Positions 7,228 through 35,794 of a stretch of DNA of 64,000 bases are shown here, piece by piece. Within the stretch, counting starts at the first letter, position 1. Each line of letters begins with the position of its first letter. The notes under the pieces are model-generated. The model worked only from the letters and a program-made list of their open reading frames with translations, did not search any database and was not told where the DNA came from. Source of the DNA: Siderastrea siderea. Its lineage: Eukaryota > Cnidaria > Anthozoa > Scleractinia > Rhizangiidae. The position numbers were made by a program, and so were the translations under genes. Location: the NCBI GenBank assembly GCA_964030785.1, contig OZ034975.1, positions 41,953,069 through 42,017,068 on the forward strand, read 5' to 3'.

Positions 7228-7852
7228 GTAAAAAAATTGTTCAAAAGTTTTCAGTTATCGTTGAAATAACACCGATTGGGACATTTTCGAATGTATGGAC
7301 TTAAAGCAAAAGGTGGATAATTCAAATGACATTTAGAAGTTGTTTACGGACAGGTGTGACTCGAGTGTGAACCAGATTTAAGACTTATCAATCCAAATGA
7401 TGACTGATTTATACATGTTGAAGGCGCAGGACACAGACTATAAAGGAAACTATTAGCTAATTAGACTGACTTATGTAAAGTAGGTTTACATCTCCTTAAA
7501 TGCTCTCCAACCAGGTATGACTTTTAAAAAGGTGACTTACCTATAGATAGTTTTTTTTTAAATGTATAATTGGTTCCGTAAACTTCCACGCCAATTCAAT
7601 CGATTACGGCTTTCCTTAGCCCTTAAAGTTCTTTCTCCACTGAAGTCACAGATTTTAACTTTAAGTAGTGTTACGTTATGTTTTGTACTACATGTACTAC
7701 AATGAGTAAAGAACTTAAACGGAATGCAGAAATCAAAGCGCTGGTAGTTCTTACTCGCGAGGCTTCACAAGTGTTTCGAAGTAAATTCCCTCTGCAAATA
7801 AAAGGGACGACTTCGTCTTTTTGTCTTATTTACAGGTAAAAGAAGCTGCAGT

Positions 7853-7919
7853 ATGTTTGCGGCTTTGACTGCCTTTCTTTATTGCGTTGGAAACGTTAAC
7901 GGTTCCCCTCTGATCACAG
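7853..7919 (+). CDS. Gene B exon 1: start codon and signal peptide
   Basis: ATG at 7853 opens [20 protein letters not shown], a short hydrophobic signal peptide, and the exon ends in phase 1 at a GTATGA donor. An AG at 7834-7835 suggests the transcribed exon begins at 7836 after a 5' untranslated intron. The phase-1 end fits exon 2 exactly (G + AT gives Asp). Confidence 0.8.
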
Positions 7920-8440
7920 GTATGACATTTTCACCTTATATCTGTATTTTCCGTTACCGCAATTAATTTCCTGTACGTAAGAATACTACTATATGTCAGT
8001 TCCTATCAGAGACACCTACAGATGCGATGGGCAAGTAACTGGCTTGTTGTAATTTCTATCTTACGTCGGTTCCTGTCTCTGTCGTTGTGTTCCTACCTGA
8101 AAACGTCTTATACCAGAATCGTTTCACATTCATTAGTCTCCCTCTTCCAGGTGCATAATATACAATATACTGGCATGCCATGAAGAGAGAGAGATCGAGT
8201 TATGATAACCCTTAAGTTGTGATTTATGCAGTCTAGTAACAAACTGGGAAAACTCCGACTGTGTGGGCCACCTCAGTATGCCTTCAAGGGGAAAATGTGA
8301 CAATCGATGGCAACCAAGAGGCTGCCAATCTTTTCATAGGTGCTCCAAACATTGAAGTGATCACAAAATGAAGTGAACTGAGGTTTCTATGCCACATTAC
8401 AGAAACACAAGACTGAAGTGTTATAATGTGTCCTGTCGTG

Positions 8441-8472
<32 letters not shown>

Positions 8473-11400
8473 GATTTCGGGAACAATGATTCCCACTGTA
8501 TCTTGTAAAGAATGACGATTCTGAACATGACACTTCGATAATAGTTAAACATTTCTTATGTTAAAGACAAGCTAAAATAACAACTTTGTAGAAAGAGTAG
8601 TTTATATTTTTACGAATGACCTCTCAGGTTAAACACTAGAGTGTAGCTATACACACAAAAATCCTTATTTTTCAACAGATTATGCTCTAGAATTCCCAAA
8701 GAAGGATGTATCAGATATGGTCAACATCTGGGGTTTGCCGAGCATGAATGAGTTCACCGTGTGCTTCTGGATGAAGTCGAATGATTCCACTGATGGCACT
8801 CCTCTCAGCTACGCTGTACCTGCAGCTAACAACGAGATTCGTATAGCCAAACACAACAATTTTGACGTCTGGATCGGAAACGAGAAAGGGTAAGCTATCC
8901 CATGCGAAATAACTCTGAGAATTCCTAGGAATTCCTAAGAATATCCTAAGAATTCCTAGGAAAAAATTCTTAGGAATTCGTGAGAATTCCTAGGAATTCC
9001 TAAGAATCTGAGGTGTGAATTTTCACGGTAAATTTGGACTTGGAATTCCTAAGAATTCTTAGGAATTCCAAGTTTAAATGGTGCTGTCTTGAAATTCCTA
9101 GGAATTCCTAGGAATTCCAACTAAAAGAAAATTAAAGACAGAATTCCCAGTTACTTTCAGAAATTCCTAGGAATTCCAAGGAATGTTAAAGAACAACTGG
9201 GAATTTTTGGGAATATGTGGGAAAAAATAGGAATATGGTCAGGAATTTGTGGGAATAAATGGGAATTTCTTAAATAAGTGGGGGAAACATTAGAAACTTG
9301 ACCCAAAATGGTAACAAAAAAACAGCTGTTGGACACGATGCAATATCCCTCAATTTAAAGGCCAGTTGCTGATATTTAAAGTAGACAAATCGAGGGTCTG
9401 GTTTTTTAACCAGGCTTGGACCGGGGCAAAACCCTAGTTTTCCCGGGCTCTTGGTACAAGGGCACATTCAGTTTACCTCAGAATGTCTGTTTTCAACACA
9501 TCTTCAACAGGAGTTAAATGATAAAATTAGTTCAATTTCATTTTGGAAATACAATTCAACAATCATCGATTACCGCCTTCACTGATTTTACATATAAGGT
9601 CTTATCTGTTTTGGCTGCCTTAAGTTCACTTGCTGTAAGCAGTCTTCTGAGTTCGGTCCTCTGATGGCCTTATACATGTGGTCCTAGGAAAAAAAAATCG
9701 AAATTTTATATAAATTCTAGACCTGTCATACACTCAACATTATTACTAGGTTGCAGCGTTAATTTTCAATAAAATATAAGGTACATATGTACATGTACAG
9801 GTTGTGGTTCAAATTTTTCTTTGGTTTAAAAATTTTCAAACCAGTATAATTTCTATTTCCCTTTGTCTCAGATTCATTACCAAAATCTTAGGCAAAGGAA
9901 AATAAAAATTAATCTGGTTTGAAAAGTTTCAAACTAAAGAAAAATTTGAACCACAACATTTACAATTACAGTTCAAGTAGTAAACAAAATAAAGTAAACA
10001 ATCAAGTAGTGTGTTCCAAAGATGTGGAGGCCTGAGTGGCACAATAAGAATGATATCTGAAGCTAAGCTCTCACTTGAGTGACATTCACATTGCTTTAGC
10101 ATTACAGTGATAGACCATTTCAAATCCTTAAAACCACTAACCACAGAAGAATTTTCTGATACACCATAAAAGAACACTGTAAGTTGGTGAATACATGGTG
10201 ATGGCTTTCACATGTTCATGTATGGTTTCTCAAAATTCTCAAACTAATAATTATGTTCTAATTGAATGAGTGGGAAGGTAAGACAAGAATTAATGTTTGG
10301 CTTAAGGCTTAATGTTTGGCATATCGACCGAATGCAGGAGGTCTGTGTGCCATGCCTGAGAGCCAAATACATGGTATTTTACCATCCACCTGGACCTATG
10401 AGTGTACATGTAGGTGTTGAAATGGAATGAGGCCCCCAGAAAAGCTGAATCTGAGGTGTTCCCGTTTACCAATCAGGAGCTCTAACCACTTTTATTGTAC
10501 AGAATGAAGCTTACACGAGTCTAGAAGGAGCTATATTGTAGGTCATTGCTTACAAGGTCACCATACAGTCAGGATGCCCTCAACACTGCCCTTTCTAGCA
10601 AAATGCAGGACATGATGTAGTATGAACCTAGTAAGATTATCTACCTCACTACCAGTTTCCTTGCAGCTTAATTTATTTAGTAAAATGTATCATGTAGTTC
10701 AGCTGGAGAGCAGAAGGTCAGGGGTTTGATTTAAGTCAAGGGATTATTTACTATAAATGTTCTGCTTGCTATACGCAAAATGTTGAGCACATTTTAAAAA
10801 TTTTTAATAATTATGTTTCATCCTGGTTACTCCACCATCTTAAAAAATATAATCATTTTTGGTTAATGCATGACCAATCTCTGTAGTTATTTACAATATT
10901 TAGCCAGGGTTTTCAATAAGAAACTGAGTAGGTGGCAAAACGTTAGGAGTAGGCGGAGAATGAAAGGCGGGGGTCCGGGGGTATTCTCCCCCGGAAAATT
11001 TCGAAAATTTGGGCCTCTTAGAATGCATTTCCTGCATTCTAGAGCAAGAATTAGGGTATTTGAACAGAACAGGAAACGCAAATCACCGCTGAAATTACTC
11101 AGAATTCAGGCAAGATTCTTCTGTTTTTCGTGAACAAATCTTGGCCGATCCAGGGCCCGTTTTTTGTGGCGAATGTTTCTCATGTTAGTCGTAAATTATG
11201 AGGTAATTTCTCAATCAAATAGGCGGTGAGTTAATGGAGAATAGCCGGCGAGTTTCGCCGGCTGCCGGCCCTTATTGAAAACCCTGTTAGCACATGGTGT
11301 TTGTTTCAGTGACTGTTCAATATTGTAGTCACAATGTACATGTTCATGTAGTCCACTATAATCTACAATGAAGTATTCATGTCTTAATAATTCAAGCAGT

Positions 11401-17400: not shown

Positions 17401-20400
17401 TGTCATGAACAATATTTTTTTAAAGATACTTTACAGTTACTTGTGTCATGGACAATTTTTAAGGATATACTTTTTTTGTGAACAGAAAATAGTAGCATAA
17501 TAAGATGCTTTTGCTGCTTTGGTACATGTATGTATTCATCCTTTATTCAGTTGGTGTCCTCAATTCAACAAGCGAACTAACACATAATTTACACAAGGAA
17601 TTTATTTATTTATTAATTTTTGAGTCATGTATGTACCTTTCAATTTTGTTTGCCTGACCTGTCCTCAAAGGTTCAGGAATACCTCAATGTTTAGAAAACA
17701 AGTTAAGACTTGTTTGACTGTGTGATACATTAAATGTCCTTTTTATAACTTCCTGGAAGTTCCAAAGACATTTTACTGAAATATCCTCAACTTGAAGTCT
17801 GTCAAGTATTTAAGTCAGGGACTTAAAGTTGCTATTCCAAGTAAATTGCCAATATTTCTCATATTTAATTTAGTCATTCGTATTTATTCTCATAAATTCC
17901 CAACCATTTTTATTAGCCCAAGCCATTTAATTTAGCCATTCCCATATATTCTCAGACATTCCCAAGCCCTTTCATTATCAGTTTTGGTATTATTGGGAAT
18001 TCCTAGGAATTTCTAATAATTCCAAGTACAGTTTTAACACATTGCCATATATTCCCAGAAATTCCAAGCTTTTATGTTTTTCCTAATTTACATGTCTTGG
18101 AATCGTTTGGAGTTCCTAGGAATTCTTAAGAATTCCTAGGAATTCCATCTTTTCTGGGAATTCAGTTCGCAAGGGAATTTGTGTGCTCCTACCAATATCG
18201 ACCATTTCAAGGGTAAATTTCTTTCTTGTAAAATGCTAAAACATAAACAGGTCCAGTGATAACTCCTGCTGAAAGGGTTTGATGCCCCTGGTCTAGTCCT
18301 TAGGGTTGTATCCAAGACTTAAATCAGTTAGAATTTTGTTACAAGACTCTAGGGCTGGTTGTTACGGTAAAAGTTTTCACAAATATCTTCTGCAGCTTAG
18401 CTTACTTCTAAAGTTGAAAGGAAATATCAATCTGACACGTATGTTGTCTCTTTTATGTGACAGGGCTCTAGGGGTGTCAGCTAATGACGGAGAATGGCAT
18501 CACATCTGTGTTTCCTGGGAAAACACCGCTGGATCTTTGGACTTCTACATGGACAGCGTCTTATCCGCAAATAAGACGAACTTCAAGAGAGGACACGTGA
18601 TAAGATCTGGTGGTTCTTTGGTGCTAGGCCAAGAGCAAGGTTCACTTGGTGGCGGCTTTAACAACGCGACATCATTTCGGGGGTTTCTGACTAACCTCAA
18701 CGTGTGGAATTACTCTTTGTCACCAGATACAATCGCGCGAATCTCCAAAGGTTGCTTGTTCGAAGAGCCGGGGACCGTGTACAAGTGGTCATATTTCAAA
18801 TATGGTGTTAGAGGGAGGCCCAGATTTCATGTTCCATCACCATGTAATGTAAAAGGTAAATGATTCTTGTTTCGGGTGGGGGAGCTATTCTTTGGTTTCT
18901 TTGGGCTTTTTGTTAGAGATGAGTAGCAATAGAACATAATATATACCCTATTTCAGAACAGTAGGAAAATCATACCCTTTAGTAGACTAAGACATTTGAA
19001 AGAATATCCTTTGGGGCTAGCCATAGTAAAAAGAGTGAGTGGTTATAAAACTTGGTCTTAAAAAGCTTCGTAAGTTTCTTTGTGCTCATTAACATTTCGG
19101 AATAAGGCATGCTCTACATGCAGCGTTAAAATATTAGCGTAACCGATAAGTTAACTTCGAGACTTCCAAGAAAAAAAAGTTCCAGCCAGCGGCTGCTCGA
19201 CGCAGCCACACTGCCTCCTCCAAATGTTACAGTAGTTACAGTATCTATCTGGCTAATATAGCAAAGTATACCAGAGAGATTGTACACCTCTCTGGCTTAA
19301 GGCTTATTTTCATGTGCTTATCTTTACCCGTTAATGCTAACAGGTGATAATGAAGGAAGTGCAACGAAAACACCGTCAATCACTTCAACAGCAAGATGTG
19401 CGATGCAAAGCTCTACAGCAGTAGTTTCAACAACAACAACTCTGGGGACAAAGGACAGCTCAACAGCGAATCCGTCTACTTCTAGAGCACTGCAAACTAC
19501 AAGCAGTGTTGTTAAGACAACTTTGGTAAGAGCGGAAAGTTCATTGAAACGTTCGCTAGCCACTTCCACACCGACAGTGGAGCTAACGACAACAAAAACA
19601 ACTATTAACATAAAAGATAGATCAACAATAAGTAGCGCTTTCAGCCTTGTTGCTCCAACTACTATATTACGCTCGGAAAGTTCACCCCAAAGTTCTCAAG
19701 CTACTTCCACCGTAAAAGTGGTGCTTAGTCCATTAAAGACAAGTAATCCGATGGGAGATAGCTCAACCGTAAATCCTTCAAAAACCAAAGGCGCGCTAAC
19801 ATCATCGCAAAGTTCTCAAGGCACCTCCAGCTCGGAGGTGCGACCAGCCTCATCCACGAGAGGCGAAGTGATTGAAGATAGCTCGAAAGTGGGTCATTCA
19901 ACTACTGCATCACCAAAAAGTACAACTGCAAGAAATGCTGTCGTTGAAACTTCTGGCTTAGTCTCTCGAAGTCCAGGCATACCTTTACAGCCTACTTCAT
20001 CTTTGTCATCAGTGAGGTTCACAAGTACAAGTACTAAAACTGGAGAAAGCTCGTTTACTGTCAAACCTTTTACCACCAGAGCATTACAAAGTATAAGTAG
20101 TGTTGTTGGGCCTGACTCAGGTAAGGTCTATGGCAGCTTAAATTAATCGTTGTAGCCTATTGTTGGATTTCGTTTACACTGGAAATAGCCAGCGGCTAGG
20201 ATAACATAATATATGGATTTAGCCAAGCCTAAAAGCGGAGCCGCGAAGGAATAAACTGGTGTTCGTTTCTCAAAAATAGTCCTGAAACTTTTCGGTCTGA
20301 AATATATTTCGTGGCTTTTTTTGTCTCGTTCGCTTTCGAAAAGTGTTTCTCAAAAAGCCTGAAAGTGTTCCCAATTGTCCTCCAATATTTTGGGGATCTG

Positions 20401-23400: not shown

Positions 23401-25431
23401 TAGAGACATAAAGGTGATTCTAACTTCTGAGTCTGTGGATGAGGTCCTGTGGTGTGACCATTTCAGTGAAACCTCGTCAGCAGTACTTTCACATGGTCCT
23501 ATGTATATTTAAGTTTTTTACAAAATGAAAGTTGGAATTCGTCATGAATGTTGATTTCAGGCACTCTTGGGAGAGAAAAGGTTAAATATTTATATGGTTT
23601 TGGTAACGTCAGCCGCTGATTAATTTTAGAGCTGGCTGAGTTTGGCAGCTAGGTTCAAGTTTAATTTTTTCATCTTTAGGTAGCTTATGTAGAGGAGTGT
23701 ACGATTTAGACTACAGTACAACTAACTTCACATTTTAAAACGATTTTAGATTACTGAAGAAATTGGTAACTTGCTAGACATTTTGATCACAGACGTCACA
23801 ATCAAGACGCTACGGTGAGTTCGTCATGATAATAACCCACAAGCGTGAGTGCAATCATCGTTTTGTCAGATTCTGAACCTCGGAAATCGTTGCTGAATTT
23901 TTTGCCATATGATGGTGAAAACCGTGGTGAAAACGTTCGAACATCGCGGCACTTGACTACTCATGCATTTCCTTATAACGCAAAAAGCAAGGTTATGCCT
24001 TGATAACCCATGTGTGCGAGACACTAAGAAAGCTAGAAGCTCAAAAACCTAGATCAACAAACCTAGATCAATTTCCCTGATAGAATTAAAACCAAGTCAA
24101 GTTTTCCTCCCTGCATACGTAAAAAAATTCAACATCAGCAAAACTGCTGAGGAAGAACTGCTCTGAGGATTCACAGCTAGCTATTGCCACTTTATTTTGT
24201 TGGGTAACTTGATTAAACTTCATTATTTTGACAGGAAGGGAAGTGTGATAGCGGAAGTACAACTGTCTTTTGGTGAATCTGTTGGACAGAATGAGGTAGC
24301 ATCTTTACTGAATGACATGACCAAAGATGGACAGCTTGGCCAGTTTGACGTAAATGAACCTAGTGTAGCAATGGCTGCTATTTCAGGTAAATGGTAAAAG
24401 TTTAAGTTGGAGTGCTATTCTCCGCATCAATTTGAAAAGCTTCCTTTTAATGGGGACTGACTATTCAGTGACTTAATTGCCCGGTTATAGAAACATAAAT
24501 GATCAGGAGCTCTATCTGTGCTGTTATCAGAGGTGTCCGTTTATTAAATTAGTGTGAGATTAATTGGATGTAATGGAATTAACTATTATTAACTAGAGTA
24601 GGGATCAACTTCAATGTATCCCCCTTGTAGAGGTGGAAACTTCCAGTAAAAGGTAAGATACAGTAAGGACCAACACTTTGTGTCTATTTTATACAGTGTT
24701 TGCCCGTTATAACTTAAAAGCATAACTTAAAAGAAAGCGATTTGGCTATACTCACTACGGTAACATACGGTGCAACAGCACACTTATATCGCGGTCGAGA
24801 ATTTAGCATCATTCTTGGCATTGCTAACAAGCTTGTTTGTTTCTTTGTTTTTGTTTTCGTTTGTTTGTTTCTTTTTTCAACCATTGAACAGATTATAGGG
24901 GATCTATATTCTCAAATATAATTTTTTTTCTCTTGAACGCAGATTTCCCAACCACTGCACCAACTGAACCGGGGAAAATGAACATAGCATTCATATATGG
25001 ACCTGTGGCTGGTGTCCTTGTCTTGATGTTAGTTGCGTTTGTCATTTACGGATTACTTAAGCGTCGCAACCGTAAGTATAACCCTACATACCCCAACCTA
25101 TGAAACTATATACGTGTAATTCAATTTGTCAGAACTCTAAGAAAATTCAGAAAAGCCAAGTCGGATCACTCAGTGGTCCGATACTCTCACCAGCAACTCA
25201 GGTTACTATGTTGTTTGCAGAAATTATTGGCAAGTCCCGGCTTCCTGGCTTATACGTTTATGAAGACAGGCCAGAGGTTGATCGATACTAAAGAGGAAGC
25301 CAAGGGGTTAATTAAAACTTTCTTCTTGTACGGCCCTACTCCTATTTTTTCTTTTCATTCCAGCTGCTGCTAGCGTTTCGTCGTCATCATCGTCATCATT
25401 GTCACCATCATCATCACCATCGTAATCATCG

Positions 25432-25467
<36 letters not shown>

Positions 25468-26655: not shown

Positions 26656-26707
<52 letters not shown>

Positions 26708-29700
26708 TGATGGAAGCAACATTTCCAACCGAGCCGAAGCGTTCCATTTACGTTTCGACCGAGATTTCGATTACTTCTCAGTGAAGTGGGACTGGAAACG
26801 AGAATTTTTGAAAATGGAACGGCAAGTTTCGGACGGACTGGACCGAACCCGTCAAAGAGGACCATCTGGATCGAAGCGTTCCATTTATGTTTCGACCGAA
26901 ATTTCCGGAAATTTTGGCAATAATGGAAAGCACCCGAATTCTCCTTCTTTAACCTACTTCGTGTCATCTACTAATTCTAGGTTTTTCCAAATCGTTCAGT
27001 TTGTGTCATAAGAAAATTGACCATCGAGTATTGGGGATTCGCAATTAATGGAGCTTTGAGATTGGTCATTTCACGTAATAATTGATTTCGGAGAATGTCA
27101 AATAAGTGTATATCAGAATGTTCAACGCACGTGCAGAACGATTGTGCCATGACGGTCTCCTCGTCGTAACTGGCGTGGCTGTTAGAATTGCGTGTGGTTG
27201 TCTGCCTACGTCTGTTATGATTGGTAGGAGTGATTATTTTGGCCTTGGTTTTACTGAACGCAGTTTAAAACGCTCCATATTCCTTTGATACTGTTCGTTT
27301 CTTTACTTTAGAAAATATAATAACCGTGACGATTATCTGTAACGGTTTGTATCCCTTTCCGCAGAATGCGGTGGATGAAATTGAAATGGCCACAGCGAAT
27401 AACAACACCGTTGACAATGAGAGAACTGTACAGCTCATGACATTCAGTCAAACTACAAGGGTTCCACAAGGGGGAGATGAAACAGTAGCAGAGGACGGAT
27501 CATCAGATTACATAGAAATAATAGAATATGCCCCACTTCGCCCAGCAACACAATCCTGGGAAGTTTCAAGAGAACACGTGACCATTCAAAAAATCATAGG
27601 AAAAGGTGCATTTGGACAAGTTGCTCAAGGAATAATTTTATCTCTTCAAGAGGGCGAAGAAGCAACTACAGTTGCCGTAAAAATGCTGAAAGGTAAAACA
27701 GCTTAATAAAAACAAATGCAATAATGCAAAAGGAAGTACAGAAAGGCGGGCAGTCAAACATGAACAACATTGAAAAGAATTGCGAAACTGTCACACACAA
27801 AATTTGGTAAAAGTTATATATAGGCGAGGTTATAAAATTTCCATCCAAGAATAACACTGTAGTGTCATTTTTAATATTTTTCAACTAACAGCCACTGAGG
27901 CCATGTCGAGTTACGAGGACCGAAGTCGGTGCCCCCCCCCCCCCCCCCAATTATTTATTTCTTTATTGTTTGCATTTCTGACTGTAGCAAAAGTGTAAAC
28001 AAATCTGTGTTGTAGACGTTTTTCGCACAAACGTCCTTCAGGAGAAAAATAACACAGACGCTAAACAGCCGAAGTATTCAAGCCGCCTTGCAGGACCTTT
28101 TAACAGCCATGGTCTCGTAGATTCAACGAGCATTTCCTAAACTAATAATTCTCAAGTCTATTTAACTTTCCAAGGCACTAATGCTCCAAAGAAAAACCTT
28201 TTTCTTGCTCTTGTGGTTGGTGAGCCGTTAAATTTTTTAAGTCTAATTTTGCTACAATTGTCGGGAATTACATTAAACTGCAGAAAACGCCCCTGAAGCA
28301 GAGAGGAAGGACTTGTTATCAGAACTTGAACTGATGAAGCAGCTCCATCCGCATCCACACGTAATCAAACTACTGGGATGCGTCACGGAATCTGGTAAGA
28401 GCACTGAGGTCCCAAAGTCACAACACGACGGATTTGTATAGGGATTTGTATAGGGATTTGTATAGGGTTTTATCGAAATTTGAGATAAAGTATCAAAGAA
28501 AAACAACCATTTAAGGGAAGGTACGTTTTTTCTTGGGGGGGGAGGGCTGGGGCCTCAGAGGGGAGGGTCATCAGTGAAAATGAGCACCAAAAGGGGAGGG
28601 CCATACCTCATGTGAGCTATTCAAGGGAGGGTCACACATCTTTTCCAGAATTTTTTAATGAGAATTTTTGTGATGTTGCTTTCCATTTTTCTTACAGATT
28701 AAGTTTTTCTTTTCACCTACTTTGATTTAATTTGTTGTTTTATTATAGGTACATTATGGGTAAATATTCTACATGTCTATTATGCCATGGCACATAATTT
28801 ATCTCCGAGGACTCGTATCCTTTTCCGTCCGTATCGAGAAGTACTTGACTCAGGTATCGTTTCTTCAGCTTTTTGCTGTTGGTTATCCGCTGCCTGATCT
28901 CCTGAGTCGTTTAGTTCTGAAGAGTTACTAGTATAGATCCAACAACGCGCTCCACGCTGTCGGAAATGTAGGAAATACTTGTTTTTGAGAGGCAGATTTC
29001 GCATGCTAAACAAATAAACCTTTCTGTTAAAATAACCAACAGTAATTCCGGCTAGTCGGAGACAGAAGCGCATGTATTTTCCCTTAGATATTTTATGTTC
29101 AAAACTTTTATAATACTCAAATACTTCCATATTCAAACTTCAGCTATAAAACGTAAATATCCCACATTGATTGTTCGCATTTTTCTTGTTTCAGCGCGCA
29201 CACATTCAATATCGAGATAAATATATCCATATTCAAACACATCGGTTCACAAGCGAAACGTTCTGAGGTTTCTACAGCATGGAACATACCATGTAGTAGT
29301 GAGGGGAGGGTCACACTTTTGTGAGTCACCTAAAGGTGGGGGGGTCAGAAGTTTTTTTATTAAAACGCAAGGGAGGGCCAACATTTTTCTGGGAAAAAAA
29401 TGCCAAAATTCCCCAGCCCTCCCCCCCCAAGAAAAAATGTACCTTCCCTAAGTGTACATGTACGTACCATATGAAACGATGTCTATGTGTCGTTTTTGGA
29501 CTGTTTTGTGCCTTCTTGATGGCAATTTAGCGAGTTTTGGGATTTTGGTTTCTCTTCACCTTTTTCATTTAAGGTCAGAAGACAAACCAAAAACTAAACT
29601 CGCTGAAAAGGAAGTCTAGAGGGCACAAAACAGTAAAGAATAGACATCATTAAACAAGGTGCGAACACTTTATACACAATTTTGAGAGTTTATCAAACTC

Positions 29701-32700
29701 ACGACTGGTAAAATCCCATTCAGTCTCTTTATTTTCCCTTAAGGAAGCCTGCTGAAAGTCTAGGTGCTCAGTGATAAAACAAGTTTCAGTTATACTTAAT
29801 TTATACGCGACCAGGGAAGTGTTAAATAAATGGTCAACATCATGCACATATAGTTCATTTCAATTAACTAAGAACAATCGAACCAATGTTAGTCCATTTC
29901 CTAGAAATTCTTTTCTGAAGACTATGACCTGCAACCCATGTTGCATTTTGTTTCTCCATTTCAGGGGGGGCCTGGGCCCCTCCCCAACTCTAGAACTAGA
30001 ACATTATGTTAAAACCTTTTTTTACACCGCAGATCCTTTGCTTGTCATCATTGAGTATGTCCCGTATGGTGATTTGCTGGGTTACTTAAGGAAAAGCCGA
30101 GGAATAAGTGACATGTACTTCAATGACCCGGATATCAAGCCGAAAACCAGCCTGTCGTCACAGCAGCTGATGAAGTTCGCTTGGCAGATCGCTGATGGAA
30201 TGCGTTACTTATCTTCGAGAAACGTAAGCTGCGTCACACGTTCCTCTTCCATTGTTTTGCTTGTTAGAGATACGGGATTTAAGATGCGCTTCTTTTTTAT
30301 TGAAGCGTTTGACCAGAAACTGCATTTAGATTATTTACACAAGGATGATTCAGTCTCACAGAATTTATTAGCCAAACTTCATTTAGACAAAACCACATGT
30401 CAACTCAAATCGGAACGTGTTTACAAGCCTGATTTCCTTTGTTTAACAGATTGCACAGTAGCAAGCGAAGTGGTCGCAAGTTGCATTTTACTCACTGAGT
30501 TACAATTGAATAAAGCAGAAGTTTCTGGCATGCAGCCACACAGGAAGATTAATTTTTGACACCATTTTGCGTTGTTGCCTCCTTCCTAGGGTAGGAAGAG
30601 GGCAGTTTGATGTTAGGTGTGGCAACTTTGTTGTATTATTTTTGTATTACTTTATTGTATTATTTTTATTAGATCATCCACCGTGACCTTGCTGCTCGTA
30701 ACGTGTTGGTTGGAGAAGGAGAAACCTGTAAAGTGACAGACTTTGGAATGGCCAGAGACGTGCAACAGAAAAGTATCTACGAGAAGAAATCAAAGGTTTA
30801 AGTTATTACTATGTGCAGTTCACGAGCGAATTTTAATGTGTTTGAAGGCACTGTAGTCAATGGTCATTTTTGCATCGAAAATTCGAACTAATATTCAGTG
30901 GTTCAATCTAACCTGGTGTTTTTGTCCTGGGAAAGGACACCTTACTCCACTTTTTCTCCCGGCTGTTCACAAAAGGCCTGGTTGCTCGAAAGCCGGTTAA
31001 TACTAACACTGGATTTAAAAAGTTTCTGTTTCTAGTTTCCACTGCTTCGTCAAGCCTTAAAACTGACTTAAAAATTCACGCTGATCATGGCTTAGCTTAA
31101 CACTACTTTGAACACCAGCTACCAAATGAATAATTATAATAAAGTTTCGATATAACGCGCGCTCTGATTGATTGAAACAGCGTGCTTTATCAGAGTACAG
31201 ACGCACGGAGTAGCCCGTAACGCCATTCTGCGCTCGTTAGCAAGCTGAAAACCTTTCTTGCAAGCTACGAATAAAACTTGTTTTCTTGCAATAAAAGCTC
31301 AAGAAGTAGGGAGAAACACTCGCCTCGCCACTCACCCTACACTTCTTTCGTGCTCTCGTCACTTCATTGCGTGCTTTATCACAGAACAAAGAACGGTCTT
31401 GGCTTTTTTATTTGTTAAATAAAGCACGGGTGGTGGCGAACAAAATGCTTAGTGCAACCGCTCGCAATGGACTAGCGTCCCAGCCGGAGGGTAAGTAGGG
31501 GAGCTAGGGATCAGCCCTAGATTTATACTCATGTTAAAACTGATCTTTTCTCCTCATATTCTTAGGGTCGGGTGCCTGTGAAATGGACAGCTCATGAAGC
31601 ACTCTTTTATGGATTCTACACCACAAAGAGTGATGTGTAAGTAACGCACCAAAACTACAGTATAAACTACCATTACGCTAGTTCCATAAAGACCTTATGC
31701 CTGGCATGAAAACGTATGCAGTTGAACCTCTCCTACATAGACATCTTTCCATTACGGGCAGTTTACTTGGTTCCAAAGAGGCAAAATTCGTAGAAATTGT
31801 GCCTCTTTAATACCTAGCTTGACCTACCTGCCTATAAGGACACCCCTTTTTTGGGTTGTTTGGGGGGAAACCAGTTGATCTACAGTTTGTGCGAATGGCA
31901 AGCAAAACCTCTCAAATGGGAAATTAGCATGCAATTCACTCTAATTTACAGAGAGTCTGGACCTATAATCGTCGTCATTAATATTGGGACACCTTCACAT
32001 CTCAGTAATTGCCAAGGACAATTCTGTGGAAACCTCCCCCCCCCCCCCCCACCCTGTACAATGTTGATTTTCCCATCCACAATCAATTTACCAGCAACAC
32101 AACATTGTTTAAGGGTGGTGGGGGAGGGAGGTGTGGAGTCCGGTTAAAGCGTGATTGAGTTCAAAAATTGAAATTCATGTAAAATAGGCAGGATTTCTTT
32201 AGGTGTCCCAAAACTTTTTGTCGAAAATTGTATTTTGACTATTGGCGCAGGACATGGAATTAATAGAAAATAGCAAGTGGAACACAATTTTCCGTTTGAA
32301 TATTTCGATTAGGAGTTTTGGACTACCTCTCAAGACGTTCCCTTTATTTTGGAAATTTTCCGGGTCAGGCAAACCAAAATAGCCTTACCATTTACAATCC
32401 AACCGAAATTTCCGAATTGTGTTTGTAAATGGTAAACACTCTTGGTGTCCGTCTAAAGAAGTTCCACTGTACAATTAAGAATATTTGACTAAAGGAACGG
32501 CACAGTTAAGAAATCCAGCTGAAATCTTACCTCACATAATTCTTTTTCTCATACTAAGACCTATTTAAAAACAATCACGCGTGCTTCCCAAACCGTTTCC
32601 CAAAAGCGTTTTACCACGTAAGTCTACTATAATGTCGTTGTCCAATAACGGTCTTCTAACACACGGTTCGACTCAATACGTTTTAATATCTTCTCTTTTT

Positions 32701-33373
32701 CATAGATGGAGTTTTGGAGTCGTGCTTTACGAGATATTCACCATAGGTATGTCACATGTGCCACGCTACTTTAAAACTCTTAACAACTTGTACACAATAT
32801 AACACGCTTAAGTTCATGAATGGTACTCGCAGTAAAAAAAATTCCTCAATTGCCTTTACGTACTGTCTCATGGAACAATTGTGCCCCATTTCGAAGAATT
32901 TGAAAGTTCATAACTTCTTAACTTTAAATGGAATCTAACCGGGATTTCTGTTTTTGTTTGTTTGTTTGTTTTGTTTTGTTTTTCTCGTGGTAATTTTTTT
33001 AACTGCACCTGTTGGAAATGGTTCTTCAGTCACCTAAATTATCTAATATACCTTTTCCCTGTATTCAGGGGGCTCACCCTATCCACGAACACCCGCCAGA
33101 AGAATGCCGGAGTTACTCGTTCAGGGTTACCGAATGCCAAAACCGAACCACGTGGATGATGCTCTGTAAGTACGGGATTTTAACTACCGTTTTCAAGTTC
33201 AAACAACTGCTGTAGCATTTAATAGTTACTTTCCACTTTCCAGGACATTGAGACCTTCCTATTATTAGTCGAAGAGAAAATATAAACGCATGTTGCTTGG
33301 CAATTGATTACACTATCATGATTGATTGATTGACTGACTGACTGACTGACTGATTGATTGATTGATTGATTTG

Positions 33374-33429
<56 letters not shown>

Positions 33430-35794
33430 CAACTAAGATTGAGAATTGTCAGACCATCCCCCTCTTCTATCGCGTGTAATGCCTTGTTTTGACTCTTTTT
33501 AACAAGGCTAGCTATTCCTTTACAATTACCATAAGGAAGGGAGTCATATATGTCCAGGCCTCAAGAAGGAGAGCCTTATCAAAGAAGACGGCTAAAGTGA
33601 GATCTAGAGGAGAACTTATTTAAAACGTAAATCTGAGAAAAACCCAACTCAGCTTTTTACAGAAATTTCTATTTCACCACTACAATGCCTACAAATTGCA
33701 ATAGACTGAAATGATGTTTCGACCATCTCCTCACCTAAAGTATCAGTTTTAGTGTATTCTTTCCCAAAATTTCAACCTGTATTTTAATTCTGACCTCTAA
33801 ATGAGGATAGGGGGCCTATTAAGAGGGAAGAGCTTAATGGAGCTTTTACGTTCTTTGATTCTTATGACACCATTTTATTTTAATAAATTGTATTAGTTTG
33901 AGCCAAGTGGGAGACTGAGTCCCAAACGGGAGGTGTTTTCTTTCTGCTCCCATGCTCGTAAAAAATAAAATAAAATAAAGAAAAGCAACAAACAAAAGCT
34001 GAATAAATTTTGGTTATTTCTTACCCATCTCCTCATTTGCATTATTTCTCTTCATCATGCCATCTTCGTTTCCTTCTCAGTTACAGCATCATGATTCAGT
34101 GCTGGCAGGAAAATCCTGATGATCGTCCAACGTTTGAAACTCTTGGGGATGAATTGAAAGACACGGAAAACCAGCACAAGGTAAAAACAAGGCAACAGAA
34201 ATGACAGCGATATAAAAAGATTATTAATCGTGCTCAATCGTTTCTTTTTTACTGTCTTTCATTCTTAAATGTTCTGATGAGAAAAGAGCCCTTTTACCTT
34301 TCACTCGTTTGATGAAAACCGCACCAGTTCGAAAATGAATTTATTTCTCTGTCTTTTAAAGATCTTCTGATAAACAGCAAAACCGGGAAGGTACCAAAGG
34401 AAAGGTTTTTTAAAGCTAAACTTTATTGAAAAAGGAAAACCAAGGAAACCCGAACAATAATGTACAGTAATTATCGAAACAGTATTTGTCAAATCTTAAC
34501 GTTGGAATACAAAGGGAACAGCAATCCCAAAAACAGCGGCAAAAAAAAACAACAATGCACAATTTAAAGAAACATATGGTGCTTTCTCGGTCCAAAAAAG
34601 GGAGTAAAGGTCAAAAGGTTTACGGTTGTGAAGTTCCCCTCTGCTGGGTCTCTAACGAGCATTATGATTTGATGAAATGATTGGACAAAAGTGGTGGGAA
34701 TATGAAAAAAAGAACATAAACATAAACATAGACACTAAGTAAGAAACTTATCATTGGAGAGAGATTCAATGTCTTTTTTATGCAGTCTTAGCCCAAGTAA
34801 AAACCTTTCTATAGTTGGAGTGCTCTATGTACCTCTGCAAAGGAAATTCAACATTTTTCTGTAGCTTTTGCTTCCTTGGTCACCTTGTAGAATTGTACCC
34901 ACAGTGAAAACGTAGAACAAACCTATACAGCAAAATAAACAACACCACAGGGAAATAAAGCTCAGTAGCTTCTGTTTCACAGAATCAAAAGTTATAAACA
35001 GTCTATGACCCAATGTATCCTTATGAGTAGTGAAAGGATTTTAAAACTTTAAAAAACGCATTGATAAAGCGAAAGTAAAAGGCTCATGTCTTTGCAAAAC
35101 AAAACCTTGGTTTCGCATATACCGCTTTAGCAGCTAATCATAATATCGCATTTTATTATCCAGCTCCACTAACTGTAGATCGATTAACGCGCAAAATGAG
35201 TACAAATATGCAGCCAGTTTCCTATTGTTAGTTATTTGTGTAGTAAAATACCGGCTTGGCAGTTACTTGTACAGTCAATAATTGGTTTCACTGTAAATGG
35301 TTTGAACCCAGGAACCGTATCATGAGTCGATAGGGTATGATCGTCCGGGTGAGTGCAGTCCTCTGCAGAAGGACTGTTAATGATGACATTGGCTAGTGTT
35401 TCGACCCTTGACTCTGATGATGACTTCCGCTCAGGTTGTCGAAACGTCAGTCAATGTCAGCACAAACAGGCCTTCTCAGGACTACACTCACTCTGGACAA
35501 TCATACTTTACCAACTAATAATTCGTTTGTTAGCGGTGCTTTGTTACTCAGAATACTTGACGCGTTGTTTGTATTTTGGCTCGTCTTGAAGGTTCGTCAC
35601 AATACAGCTCACCTCGTTAATATATACAGCAATCCTGTACATCAAAACATCTAATAAAATATATGAATTTTACTTACGTTCTCAAAAATATATATTTGAT
35701 TCTTCTTAACTAATATTGTGTTTTACAGAAACTGATAAACATGTGCGAGTACGAAGGGGACCTGTACGACTACGTGGATGATTTCACAGTTTAA
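7853..35794 (+). CDS. Gene B: pentraxin-mucin-EGF-SEA receptor tyrosine kinase (19 exons)
   Basis: Single-pass receptor of about 1,030 residues plus one missing exon. Coding exons: 7853-7919, 8679-8889, 18464-18855, 19344-20120, 22567-22674, 23750-23814, 24235-24386, 24943-25071, 25855-25879, 26194-26239, 27365-27692, 28284-28394, 30033-30223, 30673-30795, 31566-31636, 32706-32746, 33069-33165, 34081-34180, 35729-35794. Order: signal peptide, pentraxin domain (about residues 23-223), Ser/Thr-rich linker (224-482), EGF-like (483-518), SEA, transmembrane helix, juxtamembrane, kinase, 22-residue last exon. Every junction agrees in phase except 22674/23750 (phase 1 to phase 0), where an exon for the first half of SEA must be missing or unrecognised. 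Kinase hallmarks [24 protein letters not shown] and DFG are intact; the APE motif reads AHE. The kinase resembles the FGFR/RET/Cad96Ca-like group; I cannot assign it more closely. Ligand unknown. Confidence 0.9.
7920..8678 (+). other. Gene B intron 1
   Basis: About 760 bp. The CCCGAAAC TTTTCGGG inverted motif near 8455-8470 is shared with scattered repeats at about 20285 and 36140. No coding signal. Confidence 0.5.
8679..8889 (+). CDS. Gene B exon 2: N-terminal part of pentraxin domain
   Basis: Acceptor ends at 8678, donor GTAAGC at 8890; phase 1 in and phase 2 out. It reads [20 protein letters not shown] then [12 protein letters not shown], matching the first strands of pentraxins (a FP..... 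motif followed by a Cys-x-Trp strand). The next half is 9.6 kb away. Confidence 0.85.
8918..9260. repeat. Array of GAATTCCTAGGAATTCC palindromes
   Basis: Many overlapping and spaced copies of AATTCCTAGGAATTCC and its variant AATTCCTAAGAATTC, passing into repeats of GGGAATWTKTGGGAA. It starts 28 bp after the exon 2 donor. A similar array in the opposite order and orientation lies at the other end of the same intron. Confidence 0.85.
9801..9956. mobile_element. Second copy of the TTGTGGTTCAA inverted-repeat element
   Basis: Begins GTTGTGGTTCAAATTTTTC and ends GAAAAATTTGAACCACAAC, with internal CCCTTTG / CAAAGG as in the copy at 2751-2875. The whole 156 bp folds on itself. Confidence 0.75.
12785..13993. 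mobile_element. TA-flanked 1.2-kb DNA element with about 140-bp terminal inverted repeats
   Basis: Ends are GCCTGCGAGCAGGC (12785-12798) and GCCTGCTCGCAGGC (13980-13993), each flanked by TA, consistent with a TA target duplication. The inverted ends continue inward for about 140 bp: CACTTAGTGTGCTATTCG pairs with CGAATAGCACACTAAGTG. No transposase frame is visible inside, so it looks non-autonomous. Small open frames within it have no known domain. Confidence 0.85.
15573..15798 (-). CDS. Candidate first exon of a nested minus-strand transcript
   Basis: On the minus strand an ATG at 15798 opens a 75-codon frame ([20 protein letters not shown] and on), ending at a strong AAG|GTGAGT donor. A second in-frame choice is a downstream ATG giving [10 protein letters not shown] in phase 0 at the same donor. 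A phase-0 acceptor near 15450 would continue [18 protein letters not shown]. The upstream 100 bp is locally GC-rich. No domain is recognised; it could be a real small gene, a long non-coding RNA, or chance. Confidence 0.3.
16237..16252. repeat. Poly-G tract
   Basis: A run of about 16 G within intron 2. Confidence 0.9.
17280..17481 (+). CDS. Candidate terminal exon of a nested plus-strand transcript
   Basis: After a clean polypyrimidine acceptor (TTCTTTATTTTTAG) the frame reads [20 protein letters not shown] then [17 protein letters not shown] and stays open to TGA at 17479. The charged, unbiased composition is more protein-like than the surrounding frames. It cannot be an exon of gene B because it ends in a stop without a fitting donor. 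No family recognised. Confidence 0.25.
17870..18175. repeat. Inverted counterpart of the AATTCCTAGGAATTCC array
   Basis: TTCCCATATATTCTCAGACA-type repeats come first, then GGGAATTCCTAGGAATTTC and AGGAATTCTTAAGAATTCCT. This is the mirror order of the array at 8918-9260. It ends about 290 bp before the exon 3 acceptor. Confidence 0.8.
18464..18855 (+). CDS. Gene B exon 3: C-terminal part of pentraxin domain
   Basis: Acceptor ends at 18463, donor GTAAAT at 18856; phase 2 in and phase 1 out. It carries the pentraxin family signature H-x-C-x-S-W (HHICVSW, residues about 105-111) and then [27 protein letters not shown] and a closing Trp strand. In classical pentraxins the GQEQD segment and a Glu a few residues later bind calcium. 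Here the Asp is Gly and the later Glu region reads NNATS, so the canonical calcium and phosphocholine site is probably weakened or lost. Confidence 0.92.
19344..20120 (+). CDS. Gene B exon 4: Ser/Thr-rich mucin-like segment
   Basis: 777-bp exon, phase 1 in and out, about 259 residues dominated by Ser, Thr, Pro and Val, suited to dense O-glycosylation as an extended stalk. Degenerate repeats are visible, such as [40 protein letters not shown] and the related [20 protein letters not shown]. Only one Cys. The minus-strand frames here are shadows. Confidence 0.85.
20211..22173. mobile_element. Long non-autonomous element, AGCGGAGC family, copy 1
   Basis: Starts ATATGGATTTAGCCAAGCCT AAAAGCGGAGC and ends GCAGGCTCCGCT, so the ends are short inverted repeats (AGCGGAGC / GCTCCGCT). 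Internally there are several units with TGCTTCGCTTATAGTT and GTTCTCTAACTAGAGACC, and a GGACGGACGGACG tract near 22035-22070 followed by ACGTCAGAACCAAA. Copy 2 at 57911-60196 shares the ends, the internal unit and the GGAC tract. It lies in gene B intron 4. No transposase seen. Confidence 0.7.
22567..22674 (+). CDS. Gene B exon 5: EGF-like domain
   Basis: 108-bp exon, phase 1 in and out. Six cysteines in EGF spacing: [20 protein letters not shown] followed by [15 protein letters not shown]. No calcium-binding EGF consensus. Confidence 0.85.
22926..23118. mobile_element. TTAA-flanked MITE (piggyBac-like termini)
   Basis: TTAA followed by CCCTTTAAGCCCT on the left and AGGGCTTAAAGGG followed by TTAA on the right, 193 bp overall. 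A TTAA target with CCCTTT-type ends is typical of piggyBac-derived miniature elements. The open frame inside is not a gene. Confidence 0.75.
23373..23585. mobile_element. Second TTAA-flanked MITE
   Basis: TTAACCCTTTCACTCC at the left and GGGAGAGAAAAGGTTAA at the right, imperfect inverted ends flanked by TTAA. Same general type as the element at 22926-23118, with a different interior. Confidence 0.65.
23750..23814 (+). CDS. Gene B exon 6: central part of SEA domain
   Basis: Acceptor ends at 23749, donor GTGAGT at 23815. Only phase 0 is open: [22 protein letters not shown], out in phase 2, matching exon 7. The upstream junction is unresolved (see intron 5). Confidence 0.7.
24235..24386 (+). 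CDS. Gene B exon 7: SEA domain with GSVI motif
   Basis: Phase 2 in, phase 1 out. It reads [20 protein letters not shown] followed by [20 protein letters not shown]. The [12 protein letters not shown] strand is the hallmark of SEA domains. In mucin-type SEA domains the bond between Gly and Ser of G-S-V-V-V is broken by autoproteolysis; here Gly is at 24239-24241 and Ser at 24242-24244. Confidence 0.85.
24387..24942 (+). other. Gene B intron 7
   Basis: Non-coding, T-rich toward the acceptor. Nothing else recognised. Confidence 0.6.
24943..25071 (+). CDS. Gene B exon 8: transmembrane segment
   Basis: Phase 1 in and out. A Pro/Thr-rich spacer ([11 protein letters not shown]) precedes a hydrophobic helix of about 25 residues ([20 protein letters not shown] to IYGLL), followed by the basic stop-transfer KRRN. 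This fixes a type I orientation with the kinase inside the cell. Confidence 0.92.
25379..25467. repeat. (TCA/TCG)n microsatellite
   Basis: Imperfect ATC/GTC triplets becoming a pure (ATC) run at the 3' half, within gene B intron 8. Confidence 0.95.
25855..25879 (+). CDS. Gene B exon 9: 25-bp juxtamembrane microexon
   Basis: Bounded by CCTTATAG and GTAAGC. Phase 1 in and phase 2 out, encoding RQRNKKDTR with its neighbours. It is the only sequence seen that reconciles exon 8 (phase 1 out) with exon 10 (phase 2 in). Skipping it shifts the frame into a TGA after a few codons of exon 10. Confidence 0.8.
26194..26239 (+). CDS. Gene B exon 10: juxtamembrane Tyr motifs
   Basis: 46 bp, phase 2 in and phase 0 out: [15 protein letters not shown], three tyrosines in 8 residues. 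With the next exon the last forms Y-E-N, a Grb2 SH2-type motif if phosphorylated. Confidence 0.85.
26240..27364 (+). other. Gene B intron 10
   Basis: Contains an (ATT)n microsatellite at 26658-26707, flanked by a duplicated tract: GAAGCGTTCCATTTACGTTT at 26736 and its near copy at 26873 (GAAGCGTTCCATTTATGTTT). The ATT run therefore sits at the edge of a short direct repeat of about 137-bp spacing. Confidence 0.7.
26658..26707. repeat. (ATT)n microsatellite
   Basis: About 16 ATT units. Confidence 0.95.
27365..27692 (+). CDS. Gene B exon 11: juxtamembrane and kinase N-lobe start
   Basis: Phase 0 in, phase 1 out. An acidic juxtamembrane region includes [14 protein letters not shown], then [23 protein letters not shown] and TVAVKMLK. 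The glycine loop GKGAFG and the ATP-anchoring Lys of VAVK are present. Confidence 0.95.
27932..27948. repeat. Poly-C tract
   Basis: A run of about 17 C in intron 11. Confidence 0.9.
28284..28394 (+). CDS. Gene B exon 12: kinase helix C
   Basis: Phase 1 in and out: [20 protein letters not shown] then [17 protein letters not shown]. The first Glu of SELELM is the expected salt-bridge partner of the VAVK Lys. Gene D has a 108-bp equivalent, one codon shorter. Confidence 0.95.
28511..29451. mobile_element. 0.94-kb DNA element with G-rich about 42-bp terminal inverted repeats
   Basis: The left end TTAAGGGAAGGTACGTTTTT followed by CTTGGGGGGGGAGGGCTGGGG is mirrored at the right by CCCCAGCCCTCCCCCCCCAAG and AAAAAATGTACCTTCCCTAA. 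Sub-terminal GGGAGGGTCACAC copies are also shared. It sits in gene B intron 12. It includes a 118-codon minus-strand frame (28780-29136) of unknown nature. Confidence 0.85.
30033..30223 (+). CDS. Gene B exon 13: kinase hinge and helices D-E
   Basis: 191 bp, phase 1 in and phase 0 out: [20 protein letters not shown], a short kinase insert ([17 protein letters not shown]), then [19 protein letters not shown]. The same length and phases occur in gene D (63002-63192). Confidence 0.95.
30224..30672 (+). other. Gene B intron 13, open in frame for about 111 codons
   Basis: The exon 13 frame continues through the GTAAGC donor to a stop at about 30557, so intron retention would give a truncated kinase with a novel tail. 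No domain is recognised in that tail; probably chance. Confidence 0.4.
30673..30795 (+). CDS. Gene B exon 14: catalytic loop and DFG
   Basis: 123 bp, phase 0 in and out: [13 protein letters not shown] (catalytic Asp), [12 protein letters not shown] (metal-binding Asp), and the activation-loop Tyr in [17 protein letters not shown] is the tyrosine-kinase-specific form. The exon length equals that of the gene D counterpart. Confidence 0.97.
30796..31565 (+). other. Gene B intron 14
   Basis: Contains a dispersed tract near 31150-31400 (GCGTGCTTTATCAGAGTACA) that recurs in shorter form near 53330-53370 (GTGCGTTATCAGAGTACATA). No gene. Confidence 0.5.
31566..31636 (+). CDS. Gene B exon 15: P+1 loop with AHE motif
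   Basis: Phase 0 in, phase 2 out: [24 protein letters not shown]. The usual Ala-Pro-Glu is Ala-His-Glu, the His codon CAT lying at 31593-31595 (one base from the Pro codon CCT). The Glu that pairs with the C-lobe Arg is kept. Confidence 0.95.
31637..32705 (+). other. Gene B intron 15
   Basis: Holds a C-rich run at about 32035-32050 and a tract near 32330-32450 in which TTCCGGGTCAGGC and related motifs occur. No coding signal. Confidence 0.4.
32706..32746 (+). CDS. Gene B exon 16: kinase subdomain IX
   Basis: 41-bp exon, phase 2 in and phase 1 out, encoding [13 protein letters not shown] after the Asp-Val of the previous exon (DVWSFG motif). Confidence 0.95.
33069..33165 (+). CDS. Gene B exon 17: kinase subdomain X
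   Basis: Phase 1 in, phase 2 out: [20 protein letters not shown] followed by [19 protein letters not shown] and the G-x-R-M-x-x-P segment are standard receptor kinase C-lobe motifs. Confidence 0.95.
33166..34080 (+). other. Gene B intron 17
   Basis: Contains a (GATT)n microsatellite with a GACT block at 33319-33429. Otherwise AT-rich with no coding signal. Confidence 0.6.
33319..33429. repeat. (GATT)n / (GACT)n microsatellite
   Basis: About 110 bp of GATT units with five GACT units near the start. Confidence 0.95.
34081..34180 (+). CDS. Gene B exon 18: kinase subdomain XI
   Basis: Phase 2 in, phase 0 out: [20 protein letters not shown] then [13 protein letters not shown]. The CW...P..RPTF motif provides the Arg that pairs with the APE-type Glu. 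Confidence 0.96.
34181..35728 (+). other. Gene B intron 18
   Basis: Contains a 172-bp inverted-repeat element at 35335-35506. The rest shows no coding signal. Confidence 0.6.
35335..35506. mobile_element. Short inverted-repeat element (MITE-like)
   Basis: The left end GTATGATCGTCCGGGTGAGT then GCAGTCCT is mirrored at the right by AGGACTACACTCACTCTGGA then CAATCATAC. The interior includes TTTCGACCC...GTTGTCGAAAC, also self-complementary. Confidence 0.75.
35729..35794 (+). CDS. Gene B exon 19: C-terminal tail and stop
   Basis: Phase 0 in: [21 protein letters not shown] then TAA at 35792. Three tyrosines lie in a short acidic tail ([10 protein letters not shown]), plausible docking sites after phosphorylation. 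Confidence 0.92.
   Translation, partial: KLINMCEYEGDLYDYVDDFTV

What the first reader, a model, noticed from the sequence alone, without database searches (positions are those of the whole stretch)
7853..35794. Receptor tyrosine kinase with a pentraxin-mucin-EGF-SEA ectodomain
The exons read in one direction and consistent phase (apart from one gap) from a pentraxin domain with the H-x-C-x-S-W signature, through a 259-residue Ser/Thr stalk, EGF and SEA modules, into a transmembrane helix and a complete tyrosine kinase. I know of no well-described receptor tyrosine kinase with this domain order. A pentraxin is a pattern-recognition fold, so this could be a receptor linking microbial or glycan sensing to tyrosine phosphorylation.
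Basis: partly seen in the sequence, partly recalled or inferred. Interest (0 to 1): 0.82.

Follow-up and report, generated by a model that had tools for sequence, protein, structure and literature searches.

The report
Coral receptor kinase with pentraxin-mucin module
A stony-coral-like gene for a cell-surface signalling enzyme carries, besides its family's usual outer parts, exons for a pentraxin domain on a mucin-like stalk, which may give the same receptor a second kind of sensing head; only RNA can show that the pieces are joined.

Summary
Seventeen + strand exons (7853-35794) join into one open frame of 1023 residues: signal-like start, pentraxin (Pfam 1.7e-34), 259-residue Ser/Thr stalk, six-cysteine EGF-like exon, later part of a SEA domain, TM helix, tyrosine kinase with its catalytic motifs (5e-94). 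The first SEA part is not found in the window. The kinase falls among stony-coral receptor kinases with an EGF-SEA-TM-kinase base and differing outer heads. Joined to the EGF-SEA-kinase exons they align with a Pocillopora Ig-Ig-EGF-SEA-kinase protein at 56%. So the pentraxin and mucin exons sit where the intron between Ig and EGF would be. All these modules are symmetrical phase 1-1, so either head fits. Best reading: one gene, two heads, the pentraxin-mucin head with its own first exon. There is no transcript evidence, and the Ig2 donor is weak. No pentraxin-kinase protein turned up in the searches made. Four of seven (recalled) calcium-ligand positions are replaced, so classical pathogen binding is not supported. 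A new variant of a known kind.

The parts
204..449 (+). Ig exon 1 (phase 1-1), family head upstream of the pentraxin exons
   Evidence: Pfam Ig_3 1.6e-13; with exon 2, 58% identical to P0045 over 161 positions; acceptor score 0.3, donor 5.3
1400..1639 (+). Ig exon 2 (phase 1-1); donor at 1639 or 1636
   Evidence: Pfam Ig_3 8.4e-14; acceptor score 12.5, donor weak at either site (0.6, -1.8)
7836..7919 (+). first coding exon of the pentraxin form: acceptor at 7836, ATG at 7853, signal-like [17 protein letters not shown]; phase-1 donor
   Evidence: acceptor ranks 9 of 3581 AG sites; signal peptide judged by eye
8679..8889 (+). pentraxin domain, first exon
   Evidence: Pfam Pentaxin 27-211 of the joined protein, 1.7e-34; PDB NPTX1 8.3e-33
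18464..18855 (+). pentraxin domain, second exon (HHICVSW, GQEQ)
19344..20120 (+). mucin-like stalk exon, 259 aa, 108 Ser+Thr (42%), phase 1-1
22567..22674 (+). six-cysteine EGF-like exon, phase 1-1
   Evidence: family profile 1.2e-15; alignment
23750..23814 (+). SEA middle part (ITEEIGNLL...TLR); acceptor 23750 needs an unseen upstream exon, acceptor 23760 keeps the frame without it
   Evidence: (23750 scores 2.7; 23760 not scored)
24235..24386 (+). SEA later part with GSVIAEV, the G-S cleavage-type motif of SEA domains
   Evidence: family profile 2.6e-16; G-S in 23 of 23 relatives aligned
24943..25071 (+). transmembrane helix exon
   Evidence: family profile 1.2e-9; sequence
27312..27692 (+). 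juxtamembrane part and glycine-rich loop, VAVK
28284..28394 (+). kinase exon
   Evidence: 86% to P0062 over 37 residues; acceptor scores low (-2.5)
30033..30223 (+). kinase exon
30673..30795 (+). kinase exon: [11 protein letters not shown], activation-loop Tyr; weak donor GTTTAA (2.6)
31566..31636 (+). kinase exon
32706..32746 (+). kinase exon
33069..33165 (+). kinase exon
34081..34180 (+). kinase exon
35729..35794 (+). last coding exon with three tyrosines in the tail, and stop
   Evidence: no tblastn hit of its own; aligned with the end of P0045 in the joined protein

Best explanation
The locus is one gene of a multigene stony-coral receptor tyrosine kinase family; its subgroup has an EGF-SEA-TM-juxtamembrane-kinase base and outer heads that differ. 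This copy has two heads in line: Ig-Ig (204-1639, its start lies outside the window) and pentraxin-mucin (7836-20120), which sits where the intron between Ig2 and EGF would be. A second first exon with a signal peptide starts a transcript that reads pentraxin-mucin-EGF-SEA-TM-kinase. At the surface the mucin stalk would hold the pentraxin away from the membrane. Ligand binding or pairing of pentraxins would bring two receptors together, and the kinases would then phosphorylate each other. Shown: domains, phases, family placement. Inferred: the second promoter, both joints to the EGF exon, dimerisation, signalling.
For: One 1023-aa frame with GT-AG borders. Pentaxin 1.7e-34 and kinase 5.1e-94. 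The mucin exon ends in a good donor (8.1) with no stop before it. Signal-like start, and the acceptor before it ranks 9 of 3581 AG sites. The kinase falls in a clade of 26 rows (98/92), 19 of which carry the EGF/SEA-TM module, as sister (87/94, not a starred branch) to P0048, a D8C-EGF-SEA-kinase protein. Within that clade heads are Ig or D8C; in the wider family also FN3 or C-lectin with Sushi. Ig-Ig joined to the base aligns with P0045 at 56% over 744 positions. Six of six joins tested stay open. In Oculina, P0041 and P0043 share an identical 73-residue Ig block and an identical 548-residue end, and the EGF segment is in one and not in the other: probably predicted isoforms of one gene, though their names differ.
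Against: No transcript or proteome evidence. No pentraxin-kinase protein was found in the searches made. The first part of SEA is not found in the window, so this copy may be damaged or the assembly may lack an exon. The Ig2 donor is weak (0.6 or -1.8; the gene's own donors score 2.6 to 10.5) and the Ig1 acceptor too (0.3). Symmetrical phase-1 modules fit together by chance in many extracellular genes. A stop follows 8 codons beyond the mucin donor, and an AATAAA lies at 20250 (such signals are frequent in this AT-rich window), so a secreted pentraxin-mucin product is possible.
Confidence: 0.5

Rival explanations
1. One long receptor: Ig(n)-Ig-pentraxin-mucin-EGF-SEA-TM-kinase from a start upstream of the window; exon 7836-7919 is skipped or read as an internal exon.
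For: All joints are phase 1 and the models of 1162 and 1190 residues stay open; the strong acceptor at 7836 also fits an internal exon.
Against: Exon 7836-7919 reads like a signal peptide ([17 protein letters not shown]), odd in mid-ectodomain. None of the 120 listed relatives carries a pentraxin. Weak Ig2 donor.
Confidence: 0.2
2. Two genes: a secreted pentraxin-mucin protein nested in an intron of an Ig-Ig-EGF-SEA receptor kinase. The kinase never carries the pentraxin.
For: Ig-Ig joined straight to EGF gives the P0045 arrangement (56% over 744 positions). 87 of 88 fetched proteins that match the Ig pair carry the kinase (these proteins were mostly fetched with kinase words, so the share is biased). 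Stop 8 codons past the mucin donor and AATAAA at 20250.
Against: The mucin exon ends in a good donor with a phase-fitting acceptor downstream, so the nested gene would have to ignore its own donor. Weak Ig2 donor.
Confidence: 0.18
3. The Ig exons are a left-over of a neighbouring tandem copy and the gene simply starts at 7853.
For: A second Ig-FN3-kinase gene starts at 52 kb, so family copies stand in tandem. Signal-like first exon. Weak splice sites of the Ig exons (donor of Ig2, acceptor of Ig1).
Against: The Ig exons have no stops, and between 1.7 and 22 kb tblastn and a Pfam scan found no other family exon.
Confidence: 0.08

Closest known systems
P0045, 'fibroblast growth factor receptor 3' of Pocillopora verrucosa (and P0041, P0043 of Oculina, P0047 of Pocillopora)
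   Same: SEA-TM-juxtamembrane-kinase base, with the EGF segment in all but P0043; Ig-Ig head of P0045 like the upstream exons here; P0045 56% over 744 positions
   Different: no pentraxin, no mucin stalk; SEA of P0045 complete enough to pass Pfam (29.2 bits)
P0048, unnamed record with D8C-EGF-SEA-TM-kinase
   Same: sister in the kinase tree (87/94; P0042 lies equally near by path, 0.47); different head directly before the EGF segment
   Different: two D8C (uromodulin-like) stretches instead of pentraxin-mucin
ADGRG4 (GPR112), adhesion GPCR
   Same: pentraxin-like tip, long Ser/Thr mucin stalk, then a predicted SEA domain (PMC10687090, passages read)
   Different: GPCR instead of kinase; its SEA lacks the G-S cleavage motif; by sequence its pentraxin is far from this one (E 0.028; ADGRG6 0.0014; NPTX1 8e-33), so the likeness looks convergent
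Neuronal pentraxins NPTX1/2 and C-reactive protein
   Same: pentraxin fold by sequence, conserved cysteine pair
   Different: secreted oligomers (recalled); four of seven recalled calcium ligands are replaced here
RET and FGFR (FPVR subgroup of PMC8662651, passages read)
   Same: nearest solved kinases by sequence: RET 300 bits, FGFR1 287 (an EGFR chain stands first through two kinase copies of 173 bits each)
   Different: no RET cadherin repeats and no Ig domains in the pentraxin form

Membership tests
receptor tyrosine kinase | tyrosine kinase domain with catalytic residues | tested here: met
   PF07714 5.1e-94; [23 protein letters not shown] present
receptor tyrosine kinase | single TM helix between ectodomain and kinase | tested here: met
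   exon 24943-25071, family profile 1.2e-9; helix judged from sequence
receptor tyrosine kinase | ligand-induced dimerisation and autophosphorylation | not testable with these tools
   needs protein
pentraxin domain family | Pfam PF00354 above cut-off | tested here: met
   119.7 bits, cut-off 25
pentraxin domain family | two conserved cysteines (Cys36, Cys97 in CRP, numbering recalled) | tested here: met
   FTVCFW and HHICVSW aligned to CRP
pentraxin domain family | signature H-x-C-x-[ST]-W-x-[ST] (recalled) | tested here: not met
   HICVSWEN: last position Asn (sequence)
classical Ca2+-dependent pentraxin | seven Ca2+ ligands D60 N61 E138 Q139 D140 E147 Q150 (recalled) | tested here: not met
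   3 kept, 4 replaced (N, G, N, T) in the alignment to CRP (read by eye)
coral EGF-SEA receptor kinase subgroup | kinase in the EGF-SEA clade | tested here: met
   clade of 26 of 102 rows, 98/92
coral EGF-SEA receptor kinase subgroup | EGF-like exon before SEA | tested here: met
   1.2e-15
coral EGF-SEA receptor kinase subgroup | complete SEA domain | tested here: not met
   first ~40 residues not found in the window; later part 2.6e-16; an assembly gap is not excluded
FGFR | ectodomain of three Ig domains (recalled) | tested here: inconclusive
   none in the pentraxin form; two Ig exons upstream and the gene's start is outside the window
RET | cadherin-like ectodomain repeats | tested here: not met
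   no such Pfam hit in the pentraxin form
ADGRG4-like adhesion GPCR | GAIN and 7TM | tested here: not met
   no such Pfam hit

The most novel reading that the evidence does not exclude
One coral receptor kinase gene with interchangeable sensing heads: the same EGF-SEA-TM-kinase base is joined either to Ig-Ig or, from a second first exon in the intervening intron, to a pentraxin on a mucin stalk. It would be a receptor kinase with an ADGRG4-like outer end, in a coral family whose outer heads turn over.
Probability: 0.42. Interest if true: 0.72.

Novelty: new variant of a known kind. Interest (0 to 1): 0.55.

Why it matters
If the joint is real, a pentraxin, a fold known from soluble recognition proteins and adhesion GPCRs, is wired directly to tyrosine phosphorylation. 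The locus also shows how a receptor kinase may gain a new outer head: a symmetrical phase-1 module lodged in an intron ahead of a fixed membrane-proximal base. Among the 120 nearest kinases listed, 105 are named from stony corals (counted by eye; 15 unnamed) and their heads differ widely. The ten paper searches and the passages seen in eight papers brought up no description of this set of receptors; the library holds open-licence papers only, and most listed papers were seen by title and start of abstract alone. It would be a testable system for how corals diversify surface receptors.

Tried and rejected
The genome search on the window's own assembly did not complete (ten identical requests), so species, copy number and other loci of the same genome are untested. 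One search failed because a spliced exon starts in another frame than its first base; I left that exon out and repeated the rest. The first whole-protein search (27 proteins, mostly kinases of other kinds) drew many words from the mucin part; region searches followed. Acceptor 27365 for the juxtamembrane exon, though it scores well (10.6), breaks the frame after the TM exon; 27312 keeps it. My first SEA acceptor, 23757, was an error (the intron would end in TG), corrected to 23760; 23760 itself was not scored. The earlier 1024-aa model, with one extra Glu between EGF and SEA, was used and in the scripts; I see no effect on any domain hit, but residue numbers from those calls are one higher beyond that point. 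A hunt for hidden exons among 106 ORFs of at least 48 codons on the + strand of 1-36500, outside known exons, gave one weak hit (PBZ, 0.0031), taken as chance; shorter exons and the other strand were not scanned that way. NCBIfam gave nothing for the pentraxin part or the GPCR. A BLASTP of the mucin exon against itself showed no second match, so no repeat unit is claimed. Derivation of the pentraxin from adhesion GPCRs was rejected on scores. Structure prediction was not used: spliced proteins fall outside its stated rule.

Full report
What is in the sequence. On the + strand between 7853 and 35794, seventeen exons with GT donors and AG acceptors join into one reading frame of 1023 residues with no internal stop (exon list first made). 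In order: a signal-like start ([17 protein letters not shown]), a pentraxin domain over two exons, one exon of 259 residues with 108 Ser or Thr, an EGF-like exon with six cysteines, two exons of a SEA domain, a transmembrane exon, and nine exons of juxtamembrane part, kinase and tail. Pfam gives Pentaxin at 1.7e-34 and tyrosine kinase at 5.1e-94, and nothing above cut-off for EGF or SEA. The open frame of the mucin exon (281 codons) is longer than any ORF in 60 Markov copies of the window (maximum 197).

The SEA gap. A profile of 23 relatives (of 150 proteins fetched) recognises the EGF exon (1.2e-15), the exon with GSVIAEV (2.6e-16) and the TM exon (1.2e-9), but not the first part of SEA. A profile of that part alone (22 relatives) finds nothing in six frames of the window: best E 1 over the window, and within 20100-24400 best 0.55 for the known exon 23750 itself and 0.64 for an ORF at 23035-23115. 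The residues ITEEIG at 23750 stand where P0048 has VVEEIG (read by eye), which speaks for acceptor 23750 and an unseen exon before it; acceptor 23760 keeps the frame without that exon. The score of 23750 is low (2.7); 23760 was not scored. The window holds no N runs. So this copy either has a shortened SEA or lacks an exon in the assembly. The G-S of the SEA cleavage-type motif is kept here and in 23 of 23 relatives aligned; cleavage itself is untested.

The family. A search with kinase words gave 1504 proteins at E 1e-60 or better among 7712 candidates, of which the best 120 were listed. The total may include other receptor kinases; only the listed ones were looked at. Counted by eye, 105 of 120 are named from stony corals (Oculina, Pocillopora, Montipora, Acropora, Porites, Stylophora) and 15 are unnamed records; nine of the unnamed are only 33-45% identical. 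Source names are FGFR-like, Cad96Ca-like, RET-like and others. Heads differ: Ig, FN3, SEA only, C-lectin with Sushi, D8C. For Montipora foliosa 30 of 31 entries, for M. capricornis 12 of 12 and for Oculina patagonica 9 of 9 carry one contig length per species, so they may share a chromosome; for Acropora millepora it is 5 of 9, and four Pocillopora verrucosa entries show no contig. This does not show tight clustering. The window itself holds two family genes in 64 kb. A tree of 102 distinct kinase segments (116 extracted, 14 duplicates dropped) puts the window's kinase in a clade of 26 rows (98/92), 19 with the EGF/SEA-TM module, 6 without, and beside P0048 (87/94, not starred). The tool warned of long branches: P0003, P0033, P0035, P0037, P0038.

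Ig exons upstream. Two Ig exons without stops, 204-449 and 1400-1639, lie upstream on the same strand. Of the 150 fetched proteins 88 match them at 1e-10 or better, and 87 of these carry the kinase; most of these proteins were fetched with kinase words, so this share is biased. Joined straight to the EGF exon and onward, they align with P0045 of Pocillopora verrucosa from residue 44 to its end, 420 of 744 identical with 54 gap positions, most of them at the missing SEA part. Between 1.7 and 22 kb, tblastn with the 150 proteins and the Pfam scan of 106 ORFs found no other family exon apart from the pentraxin pair. The pentraxin and mucin exons therefore lie where the intron between Ig2 and EGF would be. 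Against this: the donor of Ig2 is weak (0.6 or -1.8, the gene's own donors 2.6 to 10.5), as is the acceptor of Ig1 (0.3).

How the parts can be joined. Ig1, Ig2, the exon 7836-7919, the pentraxin pair, the mucin exon and the EGF exon are all symmetrical phase 1-1 modules, so all six joins that I translated stay open. That is permissive, not proof. The acceptor before the signal-like exon scores 13.2 and ranks 9 of 3581 AG sites, so this exon probably follows an intron: either a 5'UTR intron, or it is an internal exon. The mucin exon ends in a good donor and has no stop before it; eight codons past the donor a stop follows, and AATAAA stands at 20250 among several in that intron. In Oculina, P0041 and P0043 share an identical 73-residue Ig block and an identical 548-residue end, and only P0041 has the EGF segment between them; they look like predicted isoforms of one gene, though their names differ, and the phase of that joint was not seen.

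Is pentraxin plus kinase known? A search with pentraxin words gave 4 proteins at 1e-5 or better among 392 candidates, none with a kinase domain listed. None of the 120 listed kinases carries the Pentaxin family (by eye). In a direct comparison, 5 of the 150 fetched proteins match the pentraxin and none of these is a kinase. The search tool needs shared 5-residue words and lengths of 0.55 to 1.75 times the query, so this is not proof of absence. Ten paper searches brought up no title or abstract start describing a pentraxin kinase or this set of coral receptors; most listed papers were not opened. By passages only, I looked into eight papers: PMC12549020, PMC8662651, PMC10687090, PMC12960093, PMC10236652, PMC12314368, PMC12005167, PMC13044578. 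In PMC12314368 and PMC13044578 none of the terms asked occurred.

Function. The kinase keeps its catalytic motifs. The pentraxin keeps its cysteine pair, but in the alignment to CRP four of the seven residues that I recall as calcium ligands are replaced. The other pentraxins in the comparison vary at some of these positions too (by eye). A classical calcium-dependent recognition of phosphocholine or microbes is thus not supported; it is not excluded either. The layout tip-stalk-SEA is that of ADGRG4, whose pentraxin-like domain dimerises without calcium and whose stalk is mucin-like (PMC10687090); by sequence the pentraxin here is much nearer NPTX1 (8.3e-33) than ADGRG6 (0.0014) or ADGRG4 (0.028), so this looks convergent. 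My most likely mechanism: the pentraxin on its stalk binds a ligand or its like, brings receptors together, and the kinases activate each other. Only the anatomy is shown.

Verdict. It is a new variant within a known kind.

Noticed in passing
window 52098-63818, + strand: A second receptor kinase gene of the same family: three Ig exons, a FN3 match below Pfam's cut-off (21.9 bits), a hydrophobic TM-like stretch near 56.0 kb (by eye) and kinase exons at 61.4-63.8 kb, cut by the window's end.
   Followed up: partly
window 44748-45782, + strand: An open frame of 344 codons; its part 44844-45779 matches 7tm_1 (7e-9) and Srx (7.5e-7), a rhodopsin-type GPCR apparently in one exon.
   Followed up: partly
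window 8916-9270 and 17863-18153: Arrays of an AATTCCTAGG-like 10-base unit stand near both ends of the 9.6-kb intron inside the pentraxin domain; origin unknown.
   Followed up: no
P0148 (Oculina patagonica LOC144643983): A protein of 1448 residues with six Pentaxin stretches and two F5/F8 type C stretches.
   Followed up: no
P0091 (Montipora foliosa): A kinase of the wider family with four C-lectin and six Sushi stretches, a lectin-type head on the same kind of kinase, outside the EGF-SEA clade.
   Followed up: no
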